IMG/VR virus record: IMGVR_UViG_3300023284_001620
Location: 1 to 34,317 of that record
Origin: a virus
DNA: 34,317 nt
Strand: one strand, 5' to 3'
Shown here in pieces: positions 4,749 through 33,208 of this stretch. Numbering within the stretch: the first letter of the stretch is position 1; each line of letters starts with the position of its first letter. A program made the position numbers and the translations under genes. The notes beneath the pieces were generated by a model. The model ran no database searches. It had not been told where the DNA came from and saw only the letters and a list, made by a program, of their open reading frames with translations.

Positions 4749-4978
4749 TAGACTAATAGCACCGTTTCCATTTTCCAGTGTTTCTCTTTCTTGTGTCTCA
4801 GCATCGCATCCATAGTTTTAAAATGATTCCCACAGTCACTGCATTGGCCCCTAATCTTCTTCGGTGGAGGTCTTATCTTTTCCATTCCCCTCACAATAAT
4901 TGGGGCAGTCGTCGTCGCGTACGCTCGTACTCCTGCCGTAATAGGGTCCTTCCCTAGGGTTGGGCTTGGTCTAACCAT
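4748..4978 (-). CDS. Small C2H2 zinc-finger protein
   Basis: From an ATG at 4978 (AGGCGG just upstream) the frame gives 76 residues. The C-terminal half is a C2H2 zinc finger, QCSDCGNHFKTMDAM followed by LRHKKEKH, with CxxC, a twelve-residue spacer and HxxxxH. The N-terminal half is basic and Pro-rich. A TTG start at 5017 would extend it, but that part is better explained by the overlapping membrane-protein gene. It probably binds nucleic acid or another protein; target unknown. Coupled by TAATG overlaps to both neighbours. Confidence 0.6.
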   Translation of the reverse strand: MVRPSPTLGKDPITAGVRAYATTTAPIIVRGMEKIRPPPKKIRGQCSDCGNHFKTMDAMLRHKKEKHWKMETVLLV

Positions 4979-5118
4979 TATCCGCCTAATCCCCAGAATC
5001 TGACGGCTTCTTTCCAAACAAAAACCATCATTGGTATCGCCAGGTAAAGTGCCACCACTAGAACTACCAGCCCCAACAGCAGGTTAACCAAAAATGATTC
5101 TCCTTCATTTCTTCCCAT
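4978..5118 (-). CDS. Small single-pass membrane protein
   Basis: A short gene of 46 residues: polar start (MGRNEGESF), one strongly hydrophobic segment (LLLGLVVLVVALYLAIPMM), then VWKEAVRFWGLGG. The stop overlaps the ATG of the zinc-finger gene (TAATG). The ATG at 5118 sits immediately after the terminal repeat of the short TIGR array. An alternative TTG start eight codons later has a better GGAG site. The role is unknown; a holin- or spanin-like function is possible but there is no lysin beside it. Confidence 0.5.
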   Translation of the reverse strand: MGRNEGESFLVNLLLGLVVLVVALYLAIPMMVFVWKEAVRFWGLGG

Positions 5119-5119
5119 T

Positions 5120-5361
5120 AACTCGCTTTCATCCGTCGGTAGTCTTTAAAGAGAAGACTCGCTTATACACTACGGGTGTCTCGTCCATGTTGGCTCGCTA
5201 ATCGGATACAGGGGTCTTCCGCATCTAGGCTCGCTTATTAATTGAGGGTGTCTCGGGGATATTGGCTCGCTTCAGACCTAAGGTTATCTTTCCTCTTGAG
5301 GCTCGCTTAACCGTAACGGATGTCTCCCCTTCATTGGCTCTTTATTTTGAAATTTGTCTCC
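5120..5361 (-). repeat. Short TIGR-type array (array 2), about 6-7 units
   Basis: On the plus strand the octamer GGCTCGCT (first copies AACTCGCT and GACTCGCT) recurs at 5120, 5156, 5192, 5228, 5264, 5300 and, degenerate, 5336: an exact 36-bp period. Half-way through each period lies the second repeat (GGTGTCT, GGTTATCT, GATGTCT variants). The two spacers per unit are 9-10 nt and differ from unit to unit. This is the same layout and the same repeat sequences as the large array at 19.4-20.5 kb, so it should use the same TasA-like protein. The last degenerate unit runs into the final codons of polA. Strand given as minus to match the flanking transcription; transcript direction is not proven. 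Confidence 0.85.
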
Positions 5362-8095
5362 AGTTACTTCCCGTTCGGCGGTCAATTTCAAACAGCAGGA
5401 AGTTTTTCACTTCCCTCTTAAATACTTCCAGTCCCAACTTTTCGACTTCGCTCACCAGTTCGTTCCGCACTATCAAAATCAGCTCGTCGTGCATTTGCAG
5501 TCCGATTCTCACGTCTTCAAAATCCCATTGCCGTCGAATAGCTTTCCACATTCTTACCTGCTGAATTTTAAATATCTCTGCCGCGGTTCCAGCATTATGA
5601 TGGTGCCACGCTGTTTTTGTTAGTTCGTGCAGTCGTCCTCCCCTTGCAGTTTTCAGTTCGGGCATTTCCCTCGTTCGACCAAAGTAAGTTGCTGTTGATC
5701 CTGATCGTTGGGCGTGCTTTATGTAGTTCTCCATATATTGGACTGCGACGGGTGCTCGACTCTTCCAAGCATTAATCAGTTTCGTCGCTTCGTCTGAGGC
5801 TATTCCTAATTTCTTCCCCAGGGTAAACGGTTGCATCATGTAAAGGATGGCAAAATTGATTGTTTTCCCCGACTTCCGATCGTCTGGTTCGTGTAAATCT
5901 ACATTTGGTACCGCTTCCTTCACCTCATTCCACATTTGTAGGTGAAAATCCTGGTCACTTTCAAACGCAGCGACCAGTGTCGGATCTTTTGACAGGCTCG
6001 CAAACACCACATATTCCGCCTGTCCCTGGTCAAACGACACCAACTTAAATCCATCCGGGGGTTCAATCGTCTCTCTTATTTCTACGATTCGATTCTGCAG
6101 GTTGGGTTTTTCGCAGGCGTAACGACCATGTGGTGTTCCTAGTTGGAGCCAGTTGCACTGTACTTCCCCTGCTTTCGCAAATGGTTCCCATTTCGTTAGT
6201 TGCGACACTTTTGATTGGGCTTCTCTTGCTTCTATCACCGTTCCGGCCAGCTTGTCTCCCATCGAGTGCAGCGCCTGCAGAGTTTCCTTGTCACAGGATG
6301 GCAGACCTGATTTCTTGTTCACTCTCTGAACTGGTAAGTCTCGTTCCTCGAAGAATATTCTCGCACAGTCAGCTGGTGAATTCGGTCTAAATGCCTGGTC
6401 GTTTGCCTCTGCCTTCGCTTCCCCGGTTAATCTTTCCAGTTCTTTGGTCGCAGTAGCCAGGTTCCCCGCCCAAGTTTGTTTATTTACTCTAAGTGGGGTT
6501 CGATTCATTTCTTCCGTCACCGGCTCGAGCTGGCGCTCTACTTTCAGGCTGTTTGAACCGAGCGGTAGGAAAACATCGAATTTAGGTATGCGGATCTCGT
6601 TCATCTCCTCTATTATACCATCCTGGTCAGAAATGTCAAGTCCTAAGATGTCTCTTTCCTTCTCCAAGGTTCGTATTCCGGAAACATCTGAGACCGTCCG
6701 CATTGATCCGTCGTTTCTCCTCACCCTCACTGAGAAGTCGTCCACTCGTTTAATTTCCCCCGCCCGCCAAAGTCCCTTCAGATCTCTAATTTCCACCAGC
6801 TGTCCAACCTGGTACACCGTCCGAAAAAAGGTCTCCTGTACAAACTCCTCTCCCGGATCTTCCTTCCCCTTTTGGGCTTCATGGTAGATCTTTGTCAAGT
6901 CCAAGTCCTCCAGAGAAATCTCTACCTGGTCTATCTCTCGTAAATTAGTGAATTGCAGGACTGCAGCAAAAAACTGGTTTCTCCGGTCCTCCCATTTCTC
7001 TTCCACCCGTACCTTCAGTTCTCTTGCTAGTTCCGCTACATTTTCCGCCCTCAACCATCGCGAATCTTTTCTTACAGCCCGCTCTGCCGCTACAATTTCT
7101 ACTCCTTTTAGTCTCTGTTCGTTGTAGAGTTTGATCCAGACTTTCGCCCTGTCCCCATCCTTTTGGAGAGCCTTTTCAACCACTTCTCTCTCTTCTTCGC
7201 TTTTTTGTCCCAATTGCAGTAGTAGGAAGTCGGGTAGTGTAAATTCTCTCGCAATTTCTGCGATCGGCTCAAGGTAGGATGGTAGTCTATAAGCATGTTC
7301 CCTCGTTATCAGTCTGCCTTCAGTTTCAATTTCCAGTATGTCTTCAGTCCTTTCTACTCTCATCGCGGGTGAATCTGTCTCCCGCGGCTTAATCGTCAGT
7401 ATTTCCAGCGCCGGCACGAACGCTAGGATTGCTGCAAATACCGTCGCTCCTCCTTCTACTATTGTGTATTCTTTTATTCCTGGATGCCTTACTGCCCTAA
7501 CTGTTTCTTTCTTTTCTCCCCTTAATACCGCTCTTAGTTGGCCTGCATCTAGGTCTGGTAGTACCAGTACCGCAAATAGTGGTACGGTCTCTTCTTTCCA
7601 GCTTTTATCTGAGATACTCTCCATCCCATCCCTTGGGTATTTTGCTCTTGCGTCGTCCAATCGTATTCTTCCTCCCTGAAAGGGAAGGAGCGTTAGCAGT
7701 CTTGTTATCGTCTCTTCTGCGAAGTGTCTCCCTGGTAGAGTTGGTGCCCCAAACTCCTCCCTCCTACTTAGATCCCTTAGTCGTTGGTTCCATTGGTCCT
7801 CCCTCTTATCGTTTAGTGTTTTTCTCAGTGCTCCGCTCTCCCCACTTTGGAATAGGAATACGGGCTCCGCTAGTGGGTTATCCTCGTTTGATTCCACTGC
7901 TTGCCCGTTTCCTGGTGCGTTTGTTCCTGCAATTGCGTCTTCCTCCCCTGGTTCTCCCGTATCATTCATCACCTCCAGAGCAATAAGCTCCATTCCGACT
8001 CCAAGGAGTCGGTTAAATTCTTCTGTGGCGGTTGCCTCGAATTCGTTTAGTATTTGAAAGGGAAGTCGCGATCTCGGAACACGCTGTCTCGGCAT
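5342..8095 (-). CDS. DNA polymerase, family A
   Basis: The 917-residue protein ends in a clear family A polymerase domain (about residues 600-917). It has GRYACEKPNLQN before motif A; motif A as VSFDQGQAEYVVF, with the catalytic Asp and conserved Gln and Glu of the usual DYSQIEL; motif B as DRKSGKTINFAILYM, with R, K and an aromatic finger residue; and motif C as GLQMHDELILIV, with the HDE catalytic residues. No proofreading-exonuclease motif was recognised in the long N-terminal part, which is divergent. It would replicate phage DNA. Placement between portal and head morphogenesis genes is unusual. AGGA lies upstream of the ATG. Array 2 begins at its stop codon. Confidence 0.93.
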   Translation of the reverse strand: MPRQRVPRSRLPFQILNEFEATATEEFNRLLGVGMELIALEVMNDTGEPGEEDAIAGTNAPGNGQAVESNEDNPLAEPVFLFQSGESGALRKTLNDKREDQWNQRLRDLSRREEFGAPTLPGRHFAEETITRLLTLLPFQGGRIRLDDARAKYPRDGMESISDKSWKEETVPLFAVLVLPDLDAGQLRAVLRGEKKETVRAVRHPGIKEYTIVEGGATVFAAILAFVPALEILTIKPRETDSPAMRVERTEDILEIETEGRLITREHAYRLPSYLEPIAEIAREFTLPDFLLLQLGQKSEEEREVVEKALQKDGDRAKVWIKLYNEQRLKGVEIVAAERAVRKDSRWLRAENVAELARELKVRVEEKWEDRRNQFFAAVLQFTNLREIDQVEISLEDLDLTKIYHEAQKGKEDPGEEFVQETFFRTVYQVGQLVEIRDLKGLWRAGEIKRVDDFSVRVRRNDGSMRTVSDVSGIRTLEKERDILGLDISDQDGIIEEMNEIRIPKFDVFLPLGSNSLKVERQLEPVTEEMNRTPLRVNKQTWAGNLATATKELERLTGEAKAEANDQAFRPNSPADCARIFFEERDLPVQRVNKKSGLPSCDKETLQALHSMGDKLAGTVIEAREAQSKVSQLTKWEPFAKAGEVQCNWLQLGTPHGRYACEKPNLQNRIVEIRETIEPPDGFKLVSFDQGQAEYVVFASLSKDPTLVAAFESDQDFHLQMWNEVKEAVPNVDLHEPDDRKSGKTINFAILYMMQPFTLGKKLGIASDEATKLINAWKSRAPVAVQYMENYIKHAQRSGSTATYFGRTREMPELKTARGGRLHELTKTAWHHHNAGTAAEIFKIQQVRMWKAIRRQWDFEDVRIGLQMHDELILIVRNELVSEVEKLGLEVFKREVKNFLLFEIDRRTGSNWRQISK

Positions 8096-17658: not shown

Positions 17659-19296
17659 TTACACGTTTTGGATTCCTCGAAACCCTGCACATTTCTTTAT
17701 CAGGGCTAGATTTACTTCGTGACCAGTTCTTTCATACCGGTAGGCGAGTCTCAGTACTCCTTTGATGTCCCGCCCGGTAAGGTGAAAGTTTTCTCTGCAC
17801 AGTTCTTCCACGTGTGCATCTGATAGAGACGGTAGGAATTGGTCTCTCAGCACCTTCCACATTCTTGGCAGTTCCTCGTCCCTCGGCTGCCCGTAGTTCA
17901 AGATCGCTGCGCATCTTGACAGGATCGCATCGTCCATGTCGTCGGCTCGATTCGTCGTCAGGAATATGGTGTTATTTTGGTATTCCAGCGTCCTCAAGAA
18001 GACTGCTACCACTGCATTTTGCACCAGGTCGGTTCCTCTTTCCCGCCCGAACACGTCGAACTCGTCCAGCAGGATCATACAGTGACCCCATCGTGCCGCC
18101 CGCTGGTAAACTTCCTGCAGTTTTCCTTCGATCGCCTCCGGGTTGATTCCCAATTGCCCCGAGTGCACCATATACAGAGGGGCTTTCTGTATTTCAGCGT
18201 ACACTTCCGCCGTCAGTGTTTTCCCCAATCCCGGCCGGCCTGTTAACAGCACCACATTTCCACCTGTCTTCCCGCCGACGATATCTTCCTGTATCAAGTT
18301 CAATTCTTCTGTCAGCGTGTCCAAAAGTTCCATCGTATCTTCTGGCAGTACCAGTTTCTCCCGTATTCCGTCGTCGTACTCGTAGATTTCCAGGTTGTCC
18401 GTGTGAACTTCCATCCCCTCGTTCAAACCGAGGTGAAAACACGGCAACATGAAGGTACACGGATATTCCTTGAAGGCAGTTGAATCTTCGGGCAGAACTT
18501 CCTTGATCGCTCCGAAAAGCCTTGATTTTTCTGATCTTGCCAAGTATTCCTGTACCCGTAAGTTCGTTCGACCTCTCGCCACTGCTCTCCCTTCTTCGTC
18601 GATCTTTAGTTCACAGACTACCTTTCCCCCACCAAGAGTAGATAGTTCCAGTTCGGGTCTATCCCTGTGCCAGTAGCTCCTTTCCTGGAGCATTTCCGTC
18701 GTAATCTTCAGCTGGCAGCCATATAAATCCCGCAGTTCCAAGAAGTGTTCGAAAGATTTCCCGTACGCTTCAATCCGTTCGGGGGTTTCTTTTTCCCATC
18801 CTTTCGACCAGAGCATTCCCACCAGGGTCTCTCCCTTCACATCCTCTCCATCGAACGAAATATGAAAGGACTGCATCTCTCCCCCGACCGTCAATGATTT
18901 TAAGCTGATCGTCAGATCGGCTAGTGAGTCTCTCGTTGAGGCGGAATACTGAACCCCCGTCACCATCGCAGCACATAGGGGGCCGTTTCTCCTAAACACC
19001 CACCCGAGTTCCACGTTTGTGGTAAAATAGTCGATGAACGCCGCCTCTGCCACATTCAGTGACCCTGGCTTCGCGTTCGTTGGATCTTTTTGGGCTTTCT
19101 CCCAAGAAGAGATTTGCCGGCGGATTCCTACACCAGCTTTGTCAGCCGCAAGGGCAGTCTTTAATTTCGAGAACTGGGATTTCCCCAATGCCCTTAAATC
19201 CACCGAAATACTATCACCAGGATTTCGGTACTTCTCCATCGATACGTCTAATTCGACTAGCACCTCGTGAAACGTCGCTGGAATATTTACTAGCAT
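17659..19296 (-). CDS. AAA+ ATPase
   Basis: 545 residues. The C-terminal half is an AAA+ module: Walker A LLTGRPGLGKTLTAEVYAE, Walker B CMILLDEFDVFGRER, sensor 1 IFLTTNRADDMDDAIL, an arginine-finger-like SRC, and a small lid domain. The N-terminal ~280 residues are beta-rich and unlike any domain I recognise; they probably bind substrate. The module resembles FtsH/spastin-type remodelling ATPases, without a protease domain. Substrate unknown. It is the first gene downstream of the large TIGR array in the direction of transcription, separated by a strong hairpin; GGAAAGG precedes the ATG. Confidence 0.85.
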   Translation of the reverse strand: MLVNIPATFHEVLVELDVSMEKYRNPGDSISVDLRALGKSQFSKLKTALAADKAGVGIRRQISSWEKAQKDPTNAKPGSLNVAEAAFIDYFTTNVELGWVFRRNGPLCAAMVTGVQYSASTRDSLADLTISLKSLTVGGEMQSFHISFDGEDVKGETLVGMLWSKGWEKETPERIEAYGKSFEHFLELRDLYGCQLKITTEMLQERSYWHRDRPELELSTLGGGKVVCELKIDEEGRAVARGRTNLRVQEYLARSEKSRLFGAIKEVLPEDSTAFKEYPCTFMLPCFHLGLNEGMEVHTDNLEIYEYDDGIREKLVLPEDTMELLDTLTEELNLIQEDIVGGKTGGNVVLLTGRPGLGKTLTAEVYAEIQKAPLYMVHSGQLGINPEAIEGKLQEVYQRAARWGHCMILLDEFDVFGRERGTDLVQNAVVAVFLRTLEYQNNTIFLTTNRADDMDDAILSRCAAILNYGQPRDEELPRMWKVLRDQFLPSLSDAHVEELCRENFHLTGRDIKGVLRLAYRYERTGHEVNLALIKKCAGFRGIQNV

Positions 19297-19351: not shown

Positions 19352-19365
19352 CATCTTCCTGTTAA

Positions 19366-20530
19366 GTACGCTTGCCATCTTCGGTTGTCTTACTACACAA
19401 GGCTCGCTCGCCTTCGTCGGGTATCTTTCTACGCATGGCTCGCTTTTTGTTGTCGGGTGACTAGCAGATTGAGGCTCACTTGCGATCGTCTGGTGTCTGT
19501 TATGGATAGACTCGCTTTTATCGTAGGGTGTATACCAAAAGAGGCTCGCTCTGACCTGAGGTTATCTTACTTCTTAGGCTCGCTATTAACTCTAGATTGT
19601 CTTGTGACGGTCGGCTCGCTATTAACTCTAGATTGTCTTGTGACGGTCGGCTCGCTTCTGAACCCAGGTTGTCTAATGAGCTACGGCTCGCTTCTAGATT
19701 TCGGATGTCTTCATCGCTTTGGCTCGCTTGTGAGGTTGTCTTGGAGCACAAGGCTCGCTTCCTGTCAACGGGTGTCTAATAGCGCTCGGCTCGCTTAGGA
19801 GAACAGGGTATCTTGGTGCGTCTAGGCTCGCTTGAATTCTTCGGTTGGAGAGACTCGCTCTGCATCGAAGATTATTTTACAAAGTAAGGCTCGCTCTGAC
19901 CTGAGGTTATCTTGCATCATTAGACTCGCTTTTTATCGTAGGGTGACTACACCGTAACGGCTCGCTTGCGTCGACGGGTGTCTTCATCGTTTTGGCTCGC
20001 TTGCTGTCTTGGGATGTATTAATCGTTTTGGCTCGCTCGGGGCGTTCGGTTGTCTTAGAATGATAGACTCGCTTGTCAACAAAGGGTGTCTCCCCATTTA
20101 AGGCTCGCTTCTTGTCAACGGATGTCTTGTAACGCTCGGCTCGCTCAGTGGGAAAAGTTGTCTTCCCATTTTAGGCTCGCTCGTAGGTCTTGGTTGTCTC
20201 ATTCATGATGGCTCGCTCGGGAAAAAGGTTGTCTTCAATCACAGGCTCGCTTGCGTCGACGGGTGTCTAAAACTGGCGGCTCGCTTATCGTTCAAGGGTG
20301 CCTTTTGACGTGAGACTTGCTGTTAACCATAGGTTGTCTCGTGGACTAAGGCTCGCTTTTAACCATAGGATGGCTTATATCGTTCGGCTCGCTTCAAGTG
20401 CACGGGTGTCTTACGTATTTAGGCTCGCTTATCGGTCGAGGATATCTTTTCCTTATTGGCACTCTTCTCCCTTTCGGGTGTATCTCACTTTTTTGGCTCG
20501 CTTCACTTGTGGGGTTGACTTTTAGTCCTC
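19366..20530 (-). repeat. Large TIGR-type array (array 1), about 33 units of 36 bp
   Basis: On the plus strand GGCTCGCT (or a 1-2 base variant) starts at 19401, 19437, 19473, 19509, 19543, 19577, 19613 and so on to 20495: 32 clear copies plus a degenerate one at 19366, mostly 36 bp apart (a few 34, 35 or 37; single short units of 31 and 27). Between successive copies lies a second conserved octamer, GGTTGTCT/GGGTGTCT. Each unit is therefore repeat 1, spacer A (about 9-10), repeat 2, spacer B (about 9-10), and the spacers vary. This is the described design of TIGR arrays, which give ~36-nt dual-guide tigRNAs for Tas proteins, and not CRISPR. Strand is set to match the TasA-like gene; transcript direction is unproven. 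Confidence 0.88.
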
Positions 20531-20547
20531 GACTAGTATCCATTCAA
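20519..20547 (-). promoter_or_regulatory. Weak candidate promoter at the head of array 1
   Basis: On the minus strand TTGAAT, 17 bases, TAAAAG: 4 of 6 matches at each hexamer. It lies right where the array begins, and the T-run after the tRNA-like RNA overlaps it. It may be chance. Confidence 0.22.
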
Positions 20548-20551
20548 AAAA

Positions 20552-20748
20552 TGGCGGGCGTGGCAGGGGTCGAACCTGCTTCGGCGACGGTACGGTTGCT
20601 CCCGTCGCTCTGCATGGGTTGGAGCGGCAACGCCCGACCCCCACACTGTCGTCCCGGCCCAGAGGTCGTCTCGTTCCAGTAAGCAGTCATCAGGTTGCCC
20701 TCTGCTGTAACCAAAACGCCGTTTCTCTATCCAGTACGCCCATAATTT
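20552..20748 (-). ncRNA. Structured RNA with tRNA-like 3' domain (copy 1)
   Basis: It begins straight after the TasA-like stop with AAATTATGGGCG. The last 84 bases (20552-20635) fold like a tRNA: an acceptor helix pairing GGGCGT with ACGCCC (plus one terminal mismatch), a T arm GCAGG-TTCGACC-CCTGC with canonical loop, an anticodon-position stem GCGACGG/CCGTCGC, and a 3' GCCA followed by six T. The anticodon-position loop is 11 bases (GAGCAACCGTA) rather than 7, so it is not a normal tRNA. A second copy at 33010-33208 has the same layout, the same loop and covarying stems. Function unknown; its place between the TasA-like gene and its array is suggestive. Confidence 0.6.
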
Positions 20749-21660
20749 CTATGCTGCTCGTTCCTCCCTGTGCACGATTTCCAGTTTTGCTTCCGCGTAT
20801 GTCGGCATGACCATCAAGTTTTCCATCGGCCGCCACTGGTTATACAGGTCGCAAAGGAACATCTTCATCATGTACCGAATTGCTTGCCGGTGGCGCCGTG
20901 CTTTTGACGCCCGCCTTTCCACTTCGGTGTACTTTCCGTCGTTTTTCTTTCCCCACGTCGCGTGGTTTTCCATCCGGAGCTTGTAATCGTCGTAGTACTT
21001 CCGGTATCGTTCGTTCCCCGATCGGAGGAATGATACCCCAAGCACCCCAAGCAGTTTCGTCCGCAGAAACGGGTTGTACGTGATCGCCTTCTTGGTTTTC
21101 TGCGTCCCGTCTGCCGCTGTGTACTCTCGGTCTACCAGGTGTTCCTTCCGCTTCGACCGGCCCATGCCGTCGTCAGCCACATCCAGCCCTGCGTAAGCCC
21201 ATAGGGACGACGGGTATCGTGCTTTGTGAATGTCAAACTCTGACAATATTACCGCCGCCATTGTCGGCCCGATCCCTTTCACATCCTTCAGCCAGTTGTC
21301 CCAGATCGGAATTCCCGCCAGTTCCTGCTCCAGCGAACCGAAGTGGGTATCCTCGATTTCGTGCAGCGACCGGTATTGCCGGATCAACGTTAGTTCCGTC
21401 ATTGACGATATCAATCGCATTCCTTTGAATGGCGTCGTCCCCGATTTCTTGATCATCGCGTCCGTCACCTGTTCAAATTCCTTCGTAATTTCGTCCAGAA
21501 TTGACTTCGCTTCCGCGTCCGTCATTTCTTCTTGGGTTTGGTTTGGTTGCTGCCCCACCTTGGCCCGAAAATTCATTGCCAGTCGGTTGCCGACGGCAAT
21601 CCGCAGGCTTTGAATATCATAGGTTCCCCGAACCAGTGCCCGTAAATTTTCTTTCCTCAT
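20749..21660 (-). CDS. tasA: TasA-like protein (nuclease-less TIGR-associated, Nop/IS110 C-terminal-like)
   Basis: Read from the ATG at 21660 (AGGAG eight bases upstream; the longer reading to 21780 is unsupported) the protein has 303 residues. Its core IWDNWLKDVKGIGPTMAAVI with SEFDIHKARYPSSLWAYAGL is the helix-hairpin-helix and following segment of the IS110/IS116 transposase C-terminal domain, which is related to the Nop domain of box C/D snoRNP proteins. The usual N-terminal DEDD/RuvC domain of IS110 is absent and there is no HNH or RuvC. The C-terminus is basic and rich in Tyr and Arg (RRASKARRHRQAIRYMMKM), fit for RNA binding. With the array beside it this matches TasA, the nuclease-free member of the TIGR-Tas family, which binds tigRNA and would target DNA without cutting it. 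Confidence 0.8.
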   Translation of the reverse strand: MRKENLRALVRGTYDIQSLRIAVGNRLAMNFRAKVGQQPNQTQEEMTDAEAKSILDEITKEFEQVTDAMIKKSGTTPFKGMRLISSMTELTLIRQYRSLHEIEDTHFGSLEQELAGIPIWDNWLKDVKGIGPTMAAVILSEFDIHKARYPSSLWAYAGLDVADDGMGRSKRKEHLVDREYTAADGTQKTKKAITYNPFLRTKLLGVLGVSFLRSGNERYRKYYDDYKLRMENHATWGKKNDGKYTEVERRASKARRHRQAIRYMMKMFLCDLYNQWRPMENLMVMPTYAEAKLEIVHREERAA

Positions 21661-21683
21661 CTTGGGTTCTCCTAAAAGGGTTG

Positions 21684-21702
21684 GGGGAGCTCTCCGCTCC
21701 CC
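21684..21702 (-). terminator. Hairpin between HTH gene and TasA-like gene
   Basis: GGGGAGC pairs with GCTCCCC across a five-base loop, 24 bases before the TasA-like ATG. On the minus strand CAACCCTTTT follows. It may be an attenuator lowering TasA-like expression, or a partial terminator of the HTH gene. Confidence 0.45.
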
Positions 21703-21719
21703 TCTTTTATACCCCGATT

Positions 21720-22451
21720 TCAGGTTTTTCTCCCGTACTTCTTTCGGTCTTCGATCTTTGCCGCCTTTTCCTTCGCCCACGTCATGACGTTAAATCGACG
21801 GTAAAAGACCTCCCGTCCAAAAATTCTATGCGGTGGCATGTCACCCTTCTTCCTCCACGCGTGCAGCGTCGACGGGGCGAGTCCAACCAGTTTCGCCGTT
21901 TCCTGGTTCGAGATATACGCCTTACCCGGTCGGATTGTAGAATGAACTCCCATAGGAGACTTTCCTATCTCCGTTCGAGGATGGTCGGGTTGTTTGTGCA
22001 TCAGATTACGCACTTTATCGACCTTCACACGTGTTTGCTTAGCCAAGGGCACCTTCTTCGGCAGCTTTGGCAGTTTGGTCTTAAACGCCATTCTTTTCCA
22101 CGCCCGCACTTCCGCCTCAGCATAGACATATCGTCGACCGTTGTATTCTGATTTCGGACCTAGTCCGTCGGATCGCATCTTCGCCAGGGTTGAGTGGCCA
22201 ATACCAAGGAATTTTGCTGCGTCCCTCGTCCCCCAAAAATGCCCTTTTCCTGCGGATCGTTTTACTTTCTTTGGGGGTTTCATGTCCACCCCTGCTCCAT
22301 TCCGTAGGAAACCCACGAAATCGGTGCACAATTGTATCGCCTCGGGCGCCGTCAGTACCACCAACGGACCCACCGGTCCTGATTGGGTCAAAAACTTTAG
22401 CGCCTCCTCGTTCAGGACGTTTCTCTGTTCGTTCGTCAAGGGTTCCGTCAT
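21720..22451 (-). CDS. DNA-binding protein with two excisionase/MerR-like HTH domains
   Basis: 243 residues with two similar winged-HTH units: FWGTRDAAKFLGIGHSTLAK (about residue 90), followed by a wing with YNGRRYVYAEAEVRAW, and YISNQETAKLVGLAPSTLHA (about residue 180), followed by IFGREVFYRRFNVMTW. Each resembles the HTH_17 / excisionase type. A basic Lys/Pro linker joins them. It sits directly upstream of the TasA-like gene, with an AGGAG site, and may be co-transcribed. It could regulate the locus or be a phage recombination directionality-type factor; there is no integrase in the window to support the latter. Confidence 0.6.
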   Translation of the reverse strand: MTEPLTNEQRNVLNEEALKFLTQSGPVGPLVVLTAPEAIQLCTDFVGFLRNGAGVDMKPPKKVKRSAGKGHFWGTRDAAKFLGIGHSTLAKMRSDGLGPKSEYNGRRYVYAEAEVRAWKRMAFKTKLPKLPKKVPLAKQTRVKVDKVRNLMHKQPDHPRTEIGKSPMGVHSTIRPGKAYISNQETAKLVGLAPSTLHAWRKKGDMPPHRIFGREVFYRRFNVMTWAKEKAAKIEDRKKYGRKT

Positions 22452-23906: not shown

Positions 23907-23935
23907 ATTATACCACATTACGGGCACCTTGTCAA
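23907..23935 (-). promoter_or_regulatory. Consensus sigma-70 promoter
   Basis: On the minus strand TTGACA, 17 bases, TATAAT: perfect hexamers and spacing. It drives the 23587-23889 gene. The stop codon of the upstream small gene lies inside the -35 box. No upstream element like that of the other early promoters is seen. Confidence 0.9.
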
Positions 23936-28053: not shown

Positions 28054-28082
28054 ATTATACCATATTCCACTAGTATAGTCAA
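28054..28082 (-). promoter_or_regulatory. Consensus early promoter (module C)
   Basis: Minus strand TTGACT, 17 bases, TATAAT. Drives the 27578 gene and SprT. Shares a fixed upstream element with the promoters at 30.2 and 31.9 kb. Confidence 0.9.
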
Positions 28083-30200: not shown

Positions 30201-30229
30201 ATTATAACATGTTTCCCTAGTAATGTCAA
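30201..30229 (-). promoter_or_regulatory. Consensus early promoter (module B)
   Basis: Minus strand TTGACA, 17 bases, TATAAT: perfect. Drives genes 30173 downward. Confidence 0.92.
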
Positions 30230-31892: not shown

Positions 31893-31921
31893 ATTATAGC
31901 ACTTTCTGTCGAAAAAGTCAA
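31893..31921 (-). promoter_or_regulatory. Consensus early promoter (module A)
   Basis: Minus strand TTGACT, 17 bases, TATAAT. Drives the 31555-31866 gene. Confidence 0.9.
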
Positions 31922-32982: not shown

Positions 32983-33009
32983 TTGCCACCGTTAGTGCCC
33001 ATTTAAAAT

Positions 33010-33208
33010 TGGCGGACGTGGTGGGGGTTGCACCCACTTCTGCATTGGTACGGTTGCTCCCAATGCTCTACGTAAAGTGTGGTGGTAACACCCGGCTTCA
33101 CGTTATCATCCCGGCTAGAGATCGTCCCGCCTCAGTAGGCTGGCGCGGTTACCCGCCGCGTAACCAAAACGCCGTTTCTCTTTCCAGTACGCCCATAATT
33201 TCATACCG
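33010..33208 (-). ncRNA. Structured RNA with tRNA-like 3' domain (copy 2)
   Basis: It follows the RNase H stop (TGACGGTATGAAATTATGGGCG). The terminal 84 bases (33010-33093), the same length as copy 1, form an acceptor-like helix GGGTGT with ACGTCC (one GU and one GT swap), a T arm GTGGG-TGCAACC-CCCAC, a stem GCATTGG/CCAATGC with the same 11-base loop GAGCAACCGTA, and 3' GCCA. Stem bases differ from copy 1 but pairing is kept, so selection on structure is clear. Function unknown. Confidence 0.62.

What the first reader, a model, noticed from the sequence alone, without database searches (positions are those of the whole stretch)
5120..5361. A second, short TIGR array 14 kb away with the same repeats
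Six clean units plus a degenerate seventh, exact 36-bp period, same repeat octamers as the main array, no tas gene nearby. One unit ('CAGACCTAAGGTTATCT' form) resembles a unit in the main array ('CTGACCTGAGGTTATCT'), and ACCGTAAC occurs as spacer in both. A dispersed satellite array served in trans, or seed of a new one, is unusual. It directly follows polA, and one repeat overlaps the polA 3' end.
Basis: seen in the sequence. Interest (0 to 1): 0.85.

Follow-up and report, generated by a model that had tools for sequence, protein, structure and literature searches.

The report
Second guide-RNA array far from effector
This phage carries a second, intact six-unit array of short DNA-targeting guide RNAs, tucked behind its DNA polymerase gene 15 kb from the one protein that could use it; about one in seven related phages scatter such arrays the same way, so this young RNA-guided system can have guide sources spread over a whole phage genome.

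Summary
Six units at exact 36-nt spacing fill the 223-bp gap between polA and a 46-aa membrane-protein ORF. They use the same edge (AGCGAGCC) and loop (AGAYAHCC) repeats, read on the minus strand, as a roughly 33-unit array at 19.4-20.5 kb. That array lies beside a nuclease-less Nop-domain protein, TasA (NCBIfam TIGR_Tas 139.8 bits; AlphaFold model closest to TasH and TasR structures). No other unit and no second tas gene is in the window. The claimed seventh unit is only the truncated first edge, and spacer sharing with the main array is not clearly above chance. A census of IMG/VR phages with this repeat class shows tas-distal arrays recur. On a strict count 10 of 65 tas-bearing records (window included) have arrays more than 5 kb from tas, up to about 50 kb away, sometimes on the opposite strand, with loop variants matching the same phage's main array. 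Two distal arrays sit at the same site in diverged relatives, and one 116-kb phage shares spacer halves between arrays 51 kb apart. Best reading: a genuine trans-served TIGR array, probably co-transcribed with polA. Targets were not found. New variant of a known kind.

The parts
5119..5341 (-). Short TIGR array: 6 units of 36 nt, filling the gap between the polA stop and the next ORF
5300..5335 (-). Unit 1 (first transcribed): spacer A AATGAAGGGG, loop AGACATCC, spacer B GTTACGGTTA; 5' edge truncated (AGAGCC, 5336-5341)
5264..5299 (-). Unit 2: A TCAAGAGGAA, loop AGATAACC, B TTAGGTCTGA
5228..5263 (-). Unit 3: A AATATCCCCG, loop AGACACCC, B TCAATTAATA
5192..5227 (-). Unit 4: A TAGATGCGGA, loop AGACCCCT (variant), B GTATCCGATT
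5156..5191 (-). Unit 5: A AACATGGACG, loop AGACACCC, B GTAGTGTATA; 3' edge AGCGAGTC
5120..5155 (-). Unit 6: A TTCTCTTTAA, loop AGACTACC, B GACGGATGAA; last edge degenerate AGCGAGTT
5342..8095 (-). polA (family A DNA polymerase), directly 5' of the array on the same strand
   Evidence: Pfam DNA_pol_A 207 bits
6612..6639 (-). Perfect sigma-70-like promoter (TTGACA-16-TATAAT, extended -10) inside polA, pointing at the array; resembles four other extended -10 sites of this phage. Function inferred only
4978..5118 (-). 46-aa putative single-span membrane protein ORF starting 1 nt after the last edge
19365..20538 (-). Main TIGR array, about 33 units, same edge and loop repeats, 10 of 33 units of irregular length
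20749..21780 (-). tasA: Nop-domain TIGR effector without a detected RuvC or HNH domain; only tas gene in the window

Best explanation
The feature is a genuine, tas-distal dual-repeat TIGR array, served in trans by the single TasA of this phage. SHOWN: dual-repeat anatomy, exact 36-nt period, truncated outer edges as in complete TIGR arrays, same repeat family as the tas-adjacent array, one TasA, co-direction with polA, and recurrence of such distal arrays in other phages, two of them at a site shared with a diverged relative. INFERRED: the array is transcribed by read-through from polA, or from the promoter-like site inside polA. The transcript is cut within the edge repeats in a TasA-dependent way into six 36-nt tigRNAs. 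Each loads onto a TasA dimer, and spacers A and B pair with opposite strands of one roughly 18-bp DNA site. Because TasA has no recognised nuclease domain, the likely outcome is DNA binding and sharp bending that blocks transcription or replication of a competing element, or tags a site. Sitting behind a replication gene would tie production of these six guides to replication genes, apart from the main array. Distal arrays probably arise and change by recombination between repeats, which moves whole units or half-units.
For: Anatomy: six of six units at exactly 36 nt; first edge truncated directly after the polA TAA, last edge degenerate, as described for TIGR arrays (PMC12045711). Effector: NCBIfam TIGR_Tas_endo 139.8 bits, cutoff 100; family profile matches TasH 21kl (4.6e-58) and TasR 9mty (1.4e-44); AlphaFold model (pLDDT 84) has TasH/TasR chains as its 11 best Foldseek hits. 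Strand: array RNA and tas run the same way in the records examined. In-trans use: the loop variants of 13 distal arrays match their own record's proximal arrays (median rank 3 of 55). Distal arrays recur: 10 of 65 tas-bearing records on a strict count. In G080 and G040 some distal arrays run on the strand opposite to tas; in G080 they follow the direction of their neighbouring genes. Same-site conservation: G050 versus L035 (about 75-77% DNA identity) share 4 units at 16-19 of 20 spacer bases (null mean 0.1, max 1). G005 and L302 (terminase 62% identical) both have an array just upstream of terminase, and the L302 mini-array is flanked by a promoter-like and a terminator-like site. Exchange: in G040, 3 exact half-unit matches between arrays 51 kb apart (null mean 0.017).
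Against: No transcript or processed RNA data. No target found: neither self- nor cross-phage matches exceed controls. The window is a fragment, so another tas could lie outside it. No relative with this polA or terminase exists in IMG/VR, so same-site conservation is untested for this phage. No terminator or promoter directly flanks this array. Distal arrays on average have fewer perfect edges than proximal ones (0.46 versus 0.78, a set that includes two arrays later judged false).
Confidence: 0.77

Rival explanations
1. Non-functional remnant: a fragment of an older or duplicated TIGR array that landed behind polA and is now decaying.
For: Short; the two terminal edges and one loop are degenerate. 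Distal arrays in other phages have on average fewer perfect edges. No transcription evidence.
Against: All six units keep the exact period while 10 of 33 main-array units do not. Degeneracy is at the outer edges, where complete arrays are also truncated. No spacer shows it is a copy of the main array. Distal arrays elsewhere persist at one site with conserved spacer pairs.
Confidence: 0.13
2. The array serves a different Tas protein, encoded off the contig, by the host or by a co-infecting element.
For: The window is a linear fragment. Several records with arrays have no detectable tas (G008, G024, G025, G057, G059). One record has two TasA genes (G064).
Against: Same edges and the same TGTCT-type loop variant as the TasA-adjacent array (loop profile ranks the window's own main array 3rd of 55). 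One TasA in the same genome suffices.
Confidence: 0.06
3. The repeats act at DNA level (recombination or regulatory site behind polA) and not as guide RNA.
For: Repeats evidently recombine: half-unit mosaics and exchange between distant arrays. The fold of the array RNA is no more stable than shuffles (z +0.75).
Against: The anatomy with two variable spacers per unit and symmetric boxes is that of tigRNA. Dual-repeat TIGR RNAs are not expected to fold strongly.
Confidence: 0.04

Closest known systems
TIGR-Tas systems with dual-repeat arrays (Faure et al. 2025, PMC12045711)
   Same: Edge/spacer A/loop/spacer B units of 36 nt; symmetric box ends in edge and loop; truncated outer edges; Nop-domain Tas protein; phage genome; nuclease-less TasA type
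   Different: [quoted passage not shown] Here a separate short array lies 15 kb away behind polA, and in other phages arrays lie up to about 50 kb away and on either strand. Edges here are AGCGAGCC, not the TasR UG...CCA.
TIGR stem-loop arrays split into sub-arrays (Peromyscus gut contig, same paper)
   Same: More than one array for one TasA
   Different: Those are stem-loop units in sub-arrays separated by about 450 nt; here dual-repeat units more than 14 kb apart, embedded between unrelated genes
IS110-family RNA-guided transposases (bridge RNA)
   Same: TasA shares the Nop/Transposase_20 region (Pfam 27.7 bits; IS621 the next structural hits)
   Different: Score far below the NCBIfam IS110 cutoff (31.7 versus 140); no DEDD domain detected; repeat array instead of a single bridge RNA
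CRISPR arrays with distant or orphan loci
   Same: Several arrays in one genome can be served in trans by one set of effectors (general knowledge)
   Different: 8-nt repeats, two split spacers per unit, no Cas genes, no known adaptation proteins

Membership tests
TIGR-Tas, dual-repeat array | Two alternating 8-12-nt repeats separated by about 9-nt spacers, unit about 36 nt | tested here: met
   Six units, all 36 nt; 8-nt edge and loop repeats with 10-nt intervals
TIGR-Tas, dual-repeat array | Edge and loop share box D/box C-like ends | tested here: met
   RNA strand: edge AG..CC and loop AG..CC; 982 units across 64 records show the same positions conserved
TIGR-Tas, dual-repeat array | Array begins and ends with truncated edge repeats | tested here: met
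   AGAGCC after the polA TAA; AGCGAGTT at the 3' end
[quoted passage not shown]
   No terminator-like site at the array's 3' end; the next ORF starts 1 nt after the last edge. The source says 'typically', so this is not treated as disqualifying
TIGR-Tas, dual-repeat array | Nop-domain Tas protein encoded in the same genome | tested here: met
   tasA 20749-21780: NF052498 139.8 bits; TasH/TasR closest in sequence profile and fold
TIGR-Tas, dual-repeat array | Array adjacent to the tas gene | tested here: not met
   15.4 kb from tasA. Adjacency describes how the published arrays were found, not how they work; the main array meets it
TIGR-Tas, dual-repeat array | Transcribed and matured to 36-nt tigRNAs bound by Tas | not testable with these tools
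   Needs RNA-seq or pulldown
TIGR-Tas, dual-repeat array | Spacers A and B match opposite strands of one DNA target | tested here: inconclusive
   No excess of B + rc(A) matches in own or other TIGR phage genomes; the real target may not be in the data
TasA (nuclease-less Tas) | Nop domain without RuvC or HNH | tested here: met
   Only Transposase_20 in Pfam; residues before the first helix (39) are low-confidence and too short for a nuclease domain
IS110 transposase | N-terminal DEDD RuvC-like domain, family score | tested here: not met
   NF033542 31.7 bits against cutoff 140; only the C-terminal region aligns
CRISPR array | 25-36-nt repeats with similar-size single spacers | tested here: not met
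   8-nt repeats, split spacers

The most novel reading that the evidence does not exclude
In many phages TIGR-Tas is not a single locus but a dispersed guide network: one TasA served by several short arrays placed in gaps between genes across the genome, transcribed with different gene blocks, and evolving without adaptation genes by exchange of whole units and of single spacer halves between arrays that may lie tens of kilobases apart.
Probability: 0.45. Interest if true: 0.75.

Novelty: new variant of a known kind. Interest (0 to 1): 0.58.

Why it matters
Faure et al. [quoted passage not shown] Arrays further away would be missed by such a search, so guide repertoires of TIGR phages are probably undercounted. 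Dispersed arrays give many natural loci in which to follow gain, loss and exchange of units. The half-unit mosaics give a concrete, testable route by which two-part guides diversify without Cas1/Cas2-like proteins.

Tried and rejected
Searches for relatives of the window phage by polA and terminase in IMG/VR found none; an alignment of polA with three other TIGR phages showed only 21-22% identity, so no same-site test was possible. Self-targeting and cross-phage targeting: the raw excess for the expected geometry vanished when low-complexity units were dropped and gaps 0-7 compared. Duplication of main-array units into the short array: not above chance. A special link with polA: rejected, neighbours of distal arrays vary. 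Two apparent distal arrays in G044 (29861, 32897) proved to be low-complexity repeats with no proper loops and were dropped. RNA structure of the array: no more stable than shuffles. No Rfam family matches anywhere in the window.

Full report
OBSERVATION. The window is a 34.3-kb linear fragment of a phage (terminase, portal, major head and polA genes) in which all the identified genes lie on the minus strand. On the plus strand the motif GGCTCGCT, the complement of the RNA edge repeat AGCGAGCC, recurs at 5120 (AACTCGCT), 5156 (GACTCGCT), 5192, 5228, 5264 and 5300, with a truncated copy at 5336, each exactly 36 nt from the next. Between each pair of edges, 18 nt in, lies a loop repeat (GGGTGTCT and variants; RNA AGACACCC). 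A matrix trained on the main array alone finds exactly these six units and the main array, nothing else in the window, all above the best hit in a reversed-sequence control. Shuffled DNA gives no array in 1.2 Mb. The 'seventh unit' is the array's truncated first edge: polA ends in TAA at 5342-5344 and AGAGCC follows directly.

WHAT IT IS. The anatomy is that of a dual-repeat TIGR array (Faure et al. 2025, PMC12045711): edge, spacer A, loop, spacer B; 36-nt units; truncated outer edges. Both repeats read AG....CC on the minus strand, the box D/box C symmetry expected of tigRNA. The main array (about 33 units, 19365-20538) lies beside a 343-aa protein. That protein matches NCBIfam TIGR_Tas_endo at 139.8 bits (cutoff 100) and IS110 only at 31.7 (cutoff 140). 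An alignment of 45 relatives matches TasH (21kl, 4.6e-58) and TasR (9mty, 1.4e-44) in the PDB. Its AlphaFold model (pLDDT 84) has TasH and TasR chains as its eleven best structural hits, IS621 next. No RuvC or HNH domain is detected, so it is TasA. It is the only tas gene in the window and lies 15.4 kb from the short array. Array RNA and tas run in the same direction in the records examined, which fixes the RNA strand as minus. The short array thus lies downstream of, and co-directional with, polA. It fills the whole gap up to a 46-aa putative membrane-protein ORF. A perfect extended -10 promoter-like site lies inside polA, 1.3 kb upstream and pointing at the array, similar to four other such sites in this phage. 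Its use is inference.

RELATION TO THE MAIN ARRAY. The two arrays share repeats but, beyond chance, not clearly any spacers. One exact 8-mer (ACCGTAAC) is shared, as spacer B in one array and spacer A in the other (0.055 expected); at up to two mismatches 9 half-spacer matches are seen against 8.25 expected. The noted CAGACCTAAGGTTATCT resemblance is reached in 180 of 2000 shuffles. The short array is the more regular: 0 of 6 units deviate from 36 nt, against 10 of 33 in the main array.

IS IT ONE OF A KIND? I fetched pieces covering most records and mapped arrays and tas genes. In the first set, 12 of 62 tas-bearing records, the window included, had an array more than 2 kb from tas. After requiring proper loops and dropping low-complexity false hits, 8 of 62 had one more than 5 kb away and 6 more than 10 kb away. 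Adding three large records taken later gives 10 of 65 beyond 5 kb. G040 (116 kb) has one TasA and at least eight array loci spread over 11-82 kb on both strands. G004 has seven over 24 kb, and G050 has a tas gene with only a few degenerate repeats beside it and its main array 24 kb away. Loop variants of distal arrays match the proximal arrays of their own record (own profile ranked 1st in five of 13 cases, median rank 3 of 55), as expected if the same protein reads both. Most distal arrays lie between genes of their own direction, which in G080 is sometimes opposite to tas. Identifiable neighbours are a terminase, a helicase and a replication-initiation gene, so polA is not a special partner. 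These numbers are conditional on the repeat class searched, on fragmentary records, and on G004 and G040 having been chosen for many hits.

SAME-SITE TESTS. No relative of the window phage was found. Elsewhere, G050 and L035 (about 75-77% identical DNA) both carry the distal array at the same site, with four unit pairs matching at 16-19 of 20 spacer bases, two of them in swapped order, and the rest different (null mean 0.1, maximum 1). G005 and L302 (terminase 62% identical) both have an array just upstream of terminase. The L302 copy has only two units but is flanked by a promoter-like and a terminator-like site. So distal arrays can be kept as a unit at one place while most of their content turns over. 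Turnover is also fast in other pairs: G012 and G023, 87% identical, share no units; G088 and L072, 91% identical, share 7.

HOW ARRAYS CHANGE. Across 982 units in 64 records, pairs of units in the same record share exactly one spacer half 26 times (about 1 expected), both halves 5 times (0 expected), and swapped halves twice (0.5 expected). In G040, halves are shared exactly between the tas-proximal array and one 51 kb away on the other strand (3 against 0.017 expected). This fits recombination within the short repeats that moves single halves. It is a by-product of this work and needs read-level checking.

TARGETS. Using the published geometry, with strand one reading B then the complement of A (my derivation from the stated 8-nt 3' overhangs and the C-5 rule), neither own genomes nor the other TIGR phages show matches beyond controls. 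Function therefore remains inferred from TasA biology: RNA-guided DNA binding without cutting.

VERDICT. A real, intact, tas-distal TIGR array, most likely used in trans (0.77). A decaying remnant is the main rival (0.13). The system is known; the dispersed arrangement was not found described in the open-access papers searched, and the defining study's array search covered 5 kb either side of tas. I rate it a new variant of a known kind.

Noticed in passing
window 20547-20636 and 33005-33094 (minus strand): Two tRNA-like RNAs (71% identical): the first has a 7-bp acceptor CGGGCGT/ACGCCCG followed by CCA and a T-arm GCAGG-TTCGACC-CCTGC. The middle arm has an 11-nt loop GAGCAACCGTA identical in both copies, on a stem with compensatory changes (GCGACGG/CCGTCGC versus GCATTGG/CCAATGC). 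Not called by ARAGORN or Rfam. The first lies exactly between tasA and the main array.
   Followed up: partly
982 TIGR units in 64 records; window main array 19365-20538: Half-unit mosaicism: units in one record share one spacer half exactly, with a different other half, 26 times against about 1 expected. In the window, the TGCGTCGAC and CTGACCTGA halves each occur with two different partners.
   Followed up: partly
L305-L310 (G040, IMGVR_UViG_3300036834_000189): 116-kb phage record with one TasA and at least eight TIGR array loci on both strands over 70 kb; spacer halves shared exactly between arrays 51 kb apart.
   Followed up: yes
G024, G025, G057, G059 (50-89 kb records): Records with TIGR arrays but no detectable tas gene; they may be fragments, carry a divergent tas, or use one in trans.
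   Followed up: no
window 6612-6639, 23907-23935, 28054-28082, 30201-30229, 31893-31921 (minus): Five near-identical extended -10 promoter-like sites, TTGAC(A/T)-16/17-TATAAT preceded by TG, three of them in a longer conserved block GAAGTCACT.GGA.
   Followed up: partly
window 17659-19296 (minus): AAA+ ATPase gene directly after the main array; weak similarity to the anti-phage ATPase IteA (41 bits, far below cutoff) and to phrog_29662 (274 bits).
   Followed up: no
L268-L300 (GTDB genomes): The same repeat class occurs in contigs binned to Dehalococcoidia, Patescibacteria, Acidobacteria, Spirochaetes, Altiarchaeales, Bathyarchaeota and others, possibly proviruses.
   Followed up: no
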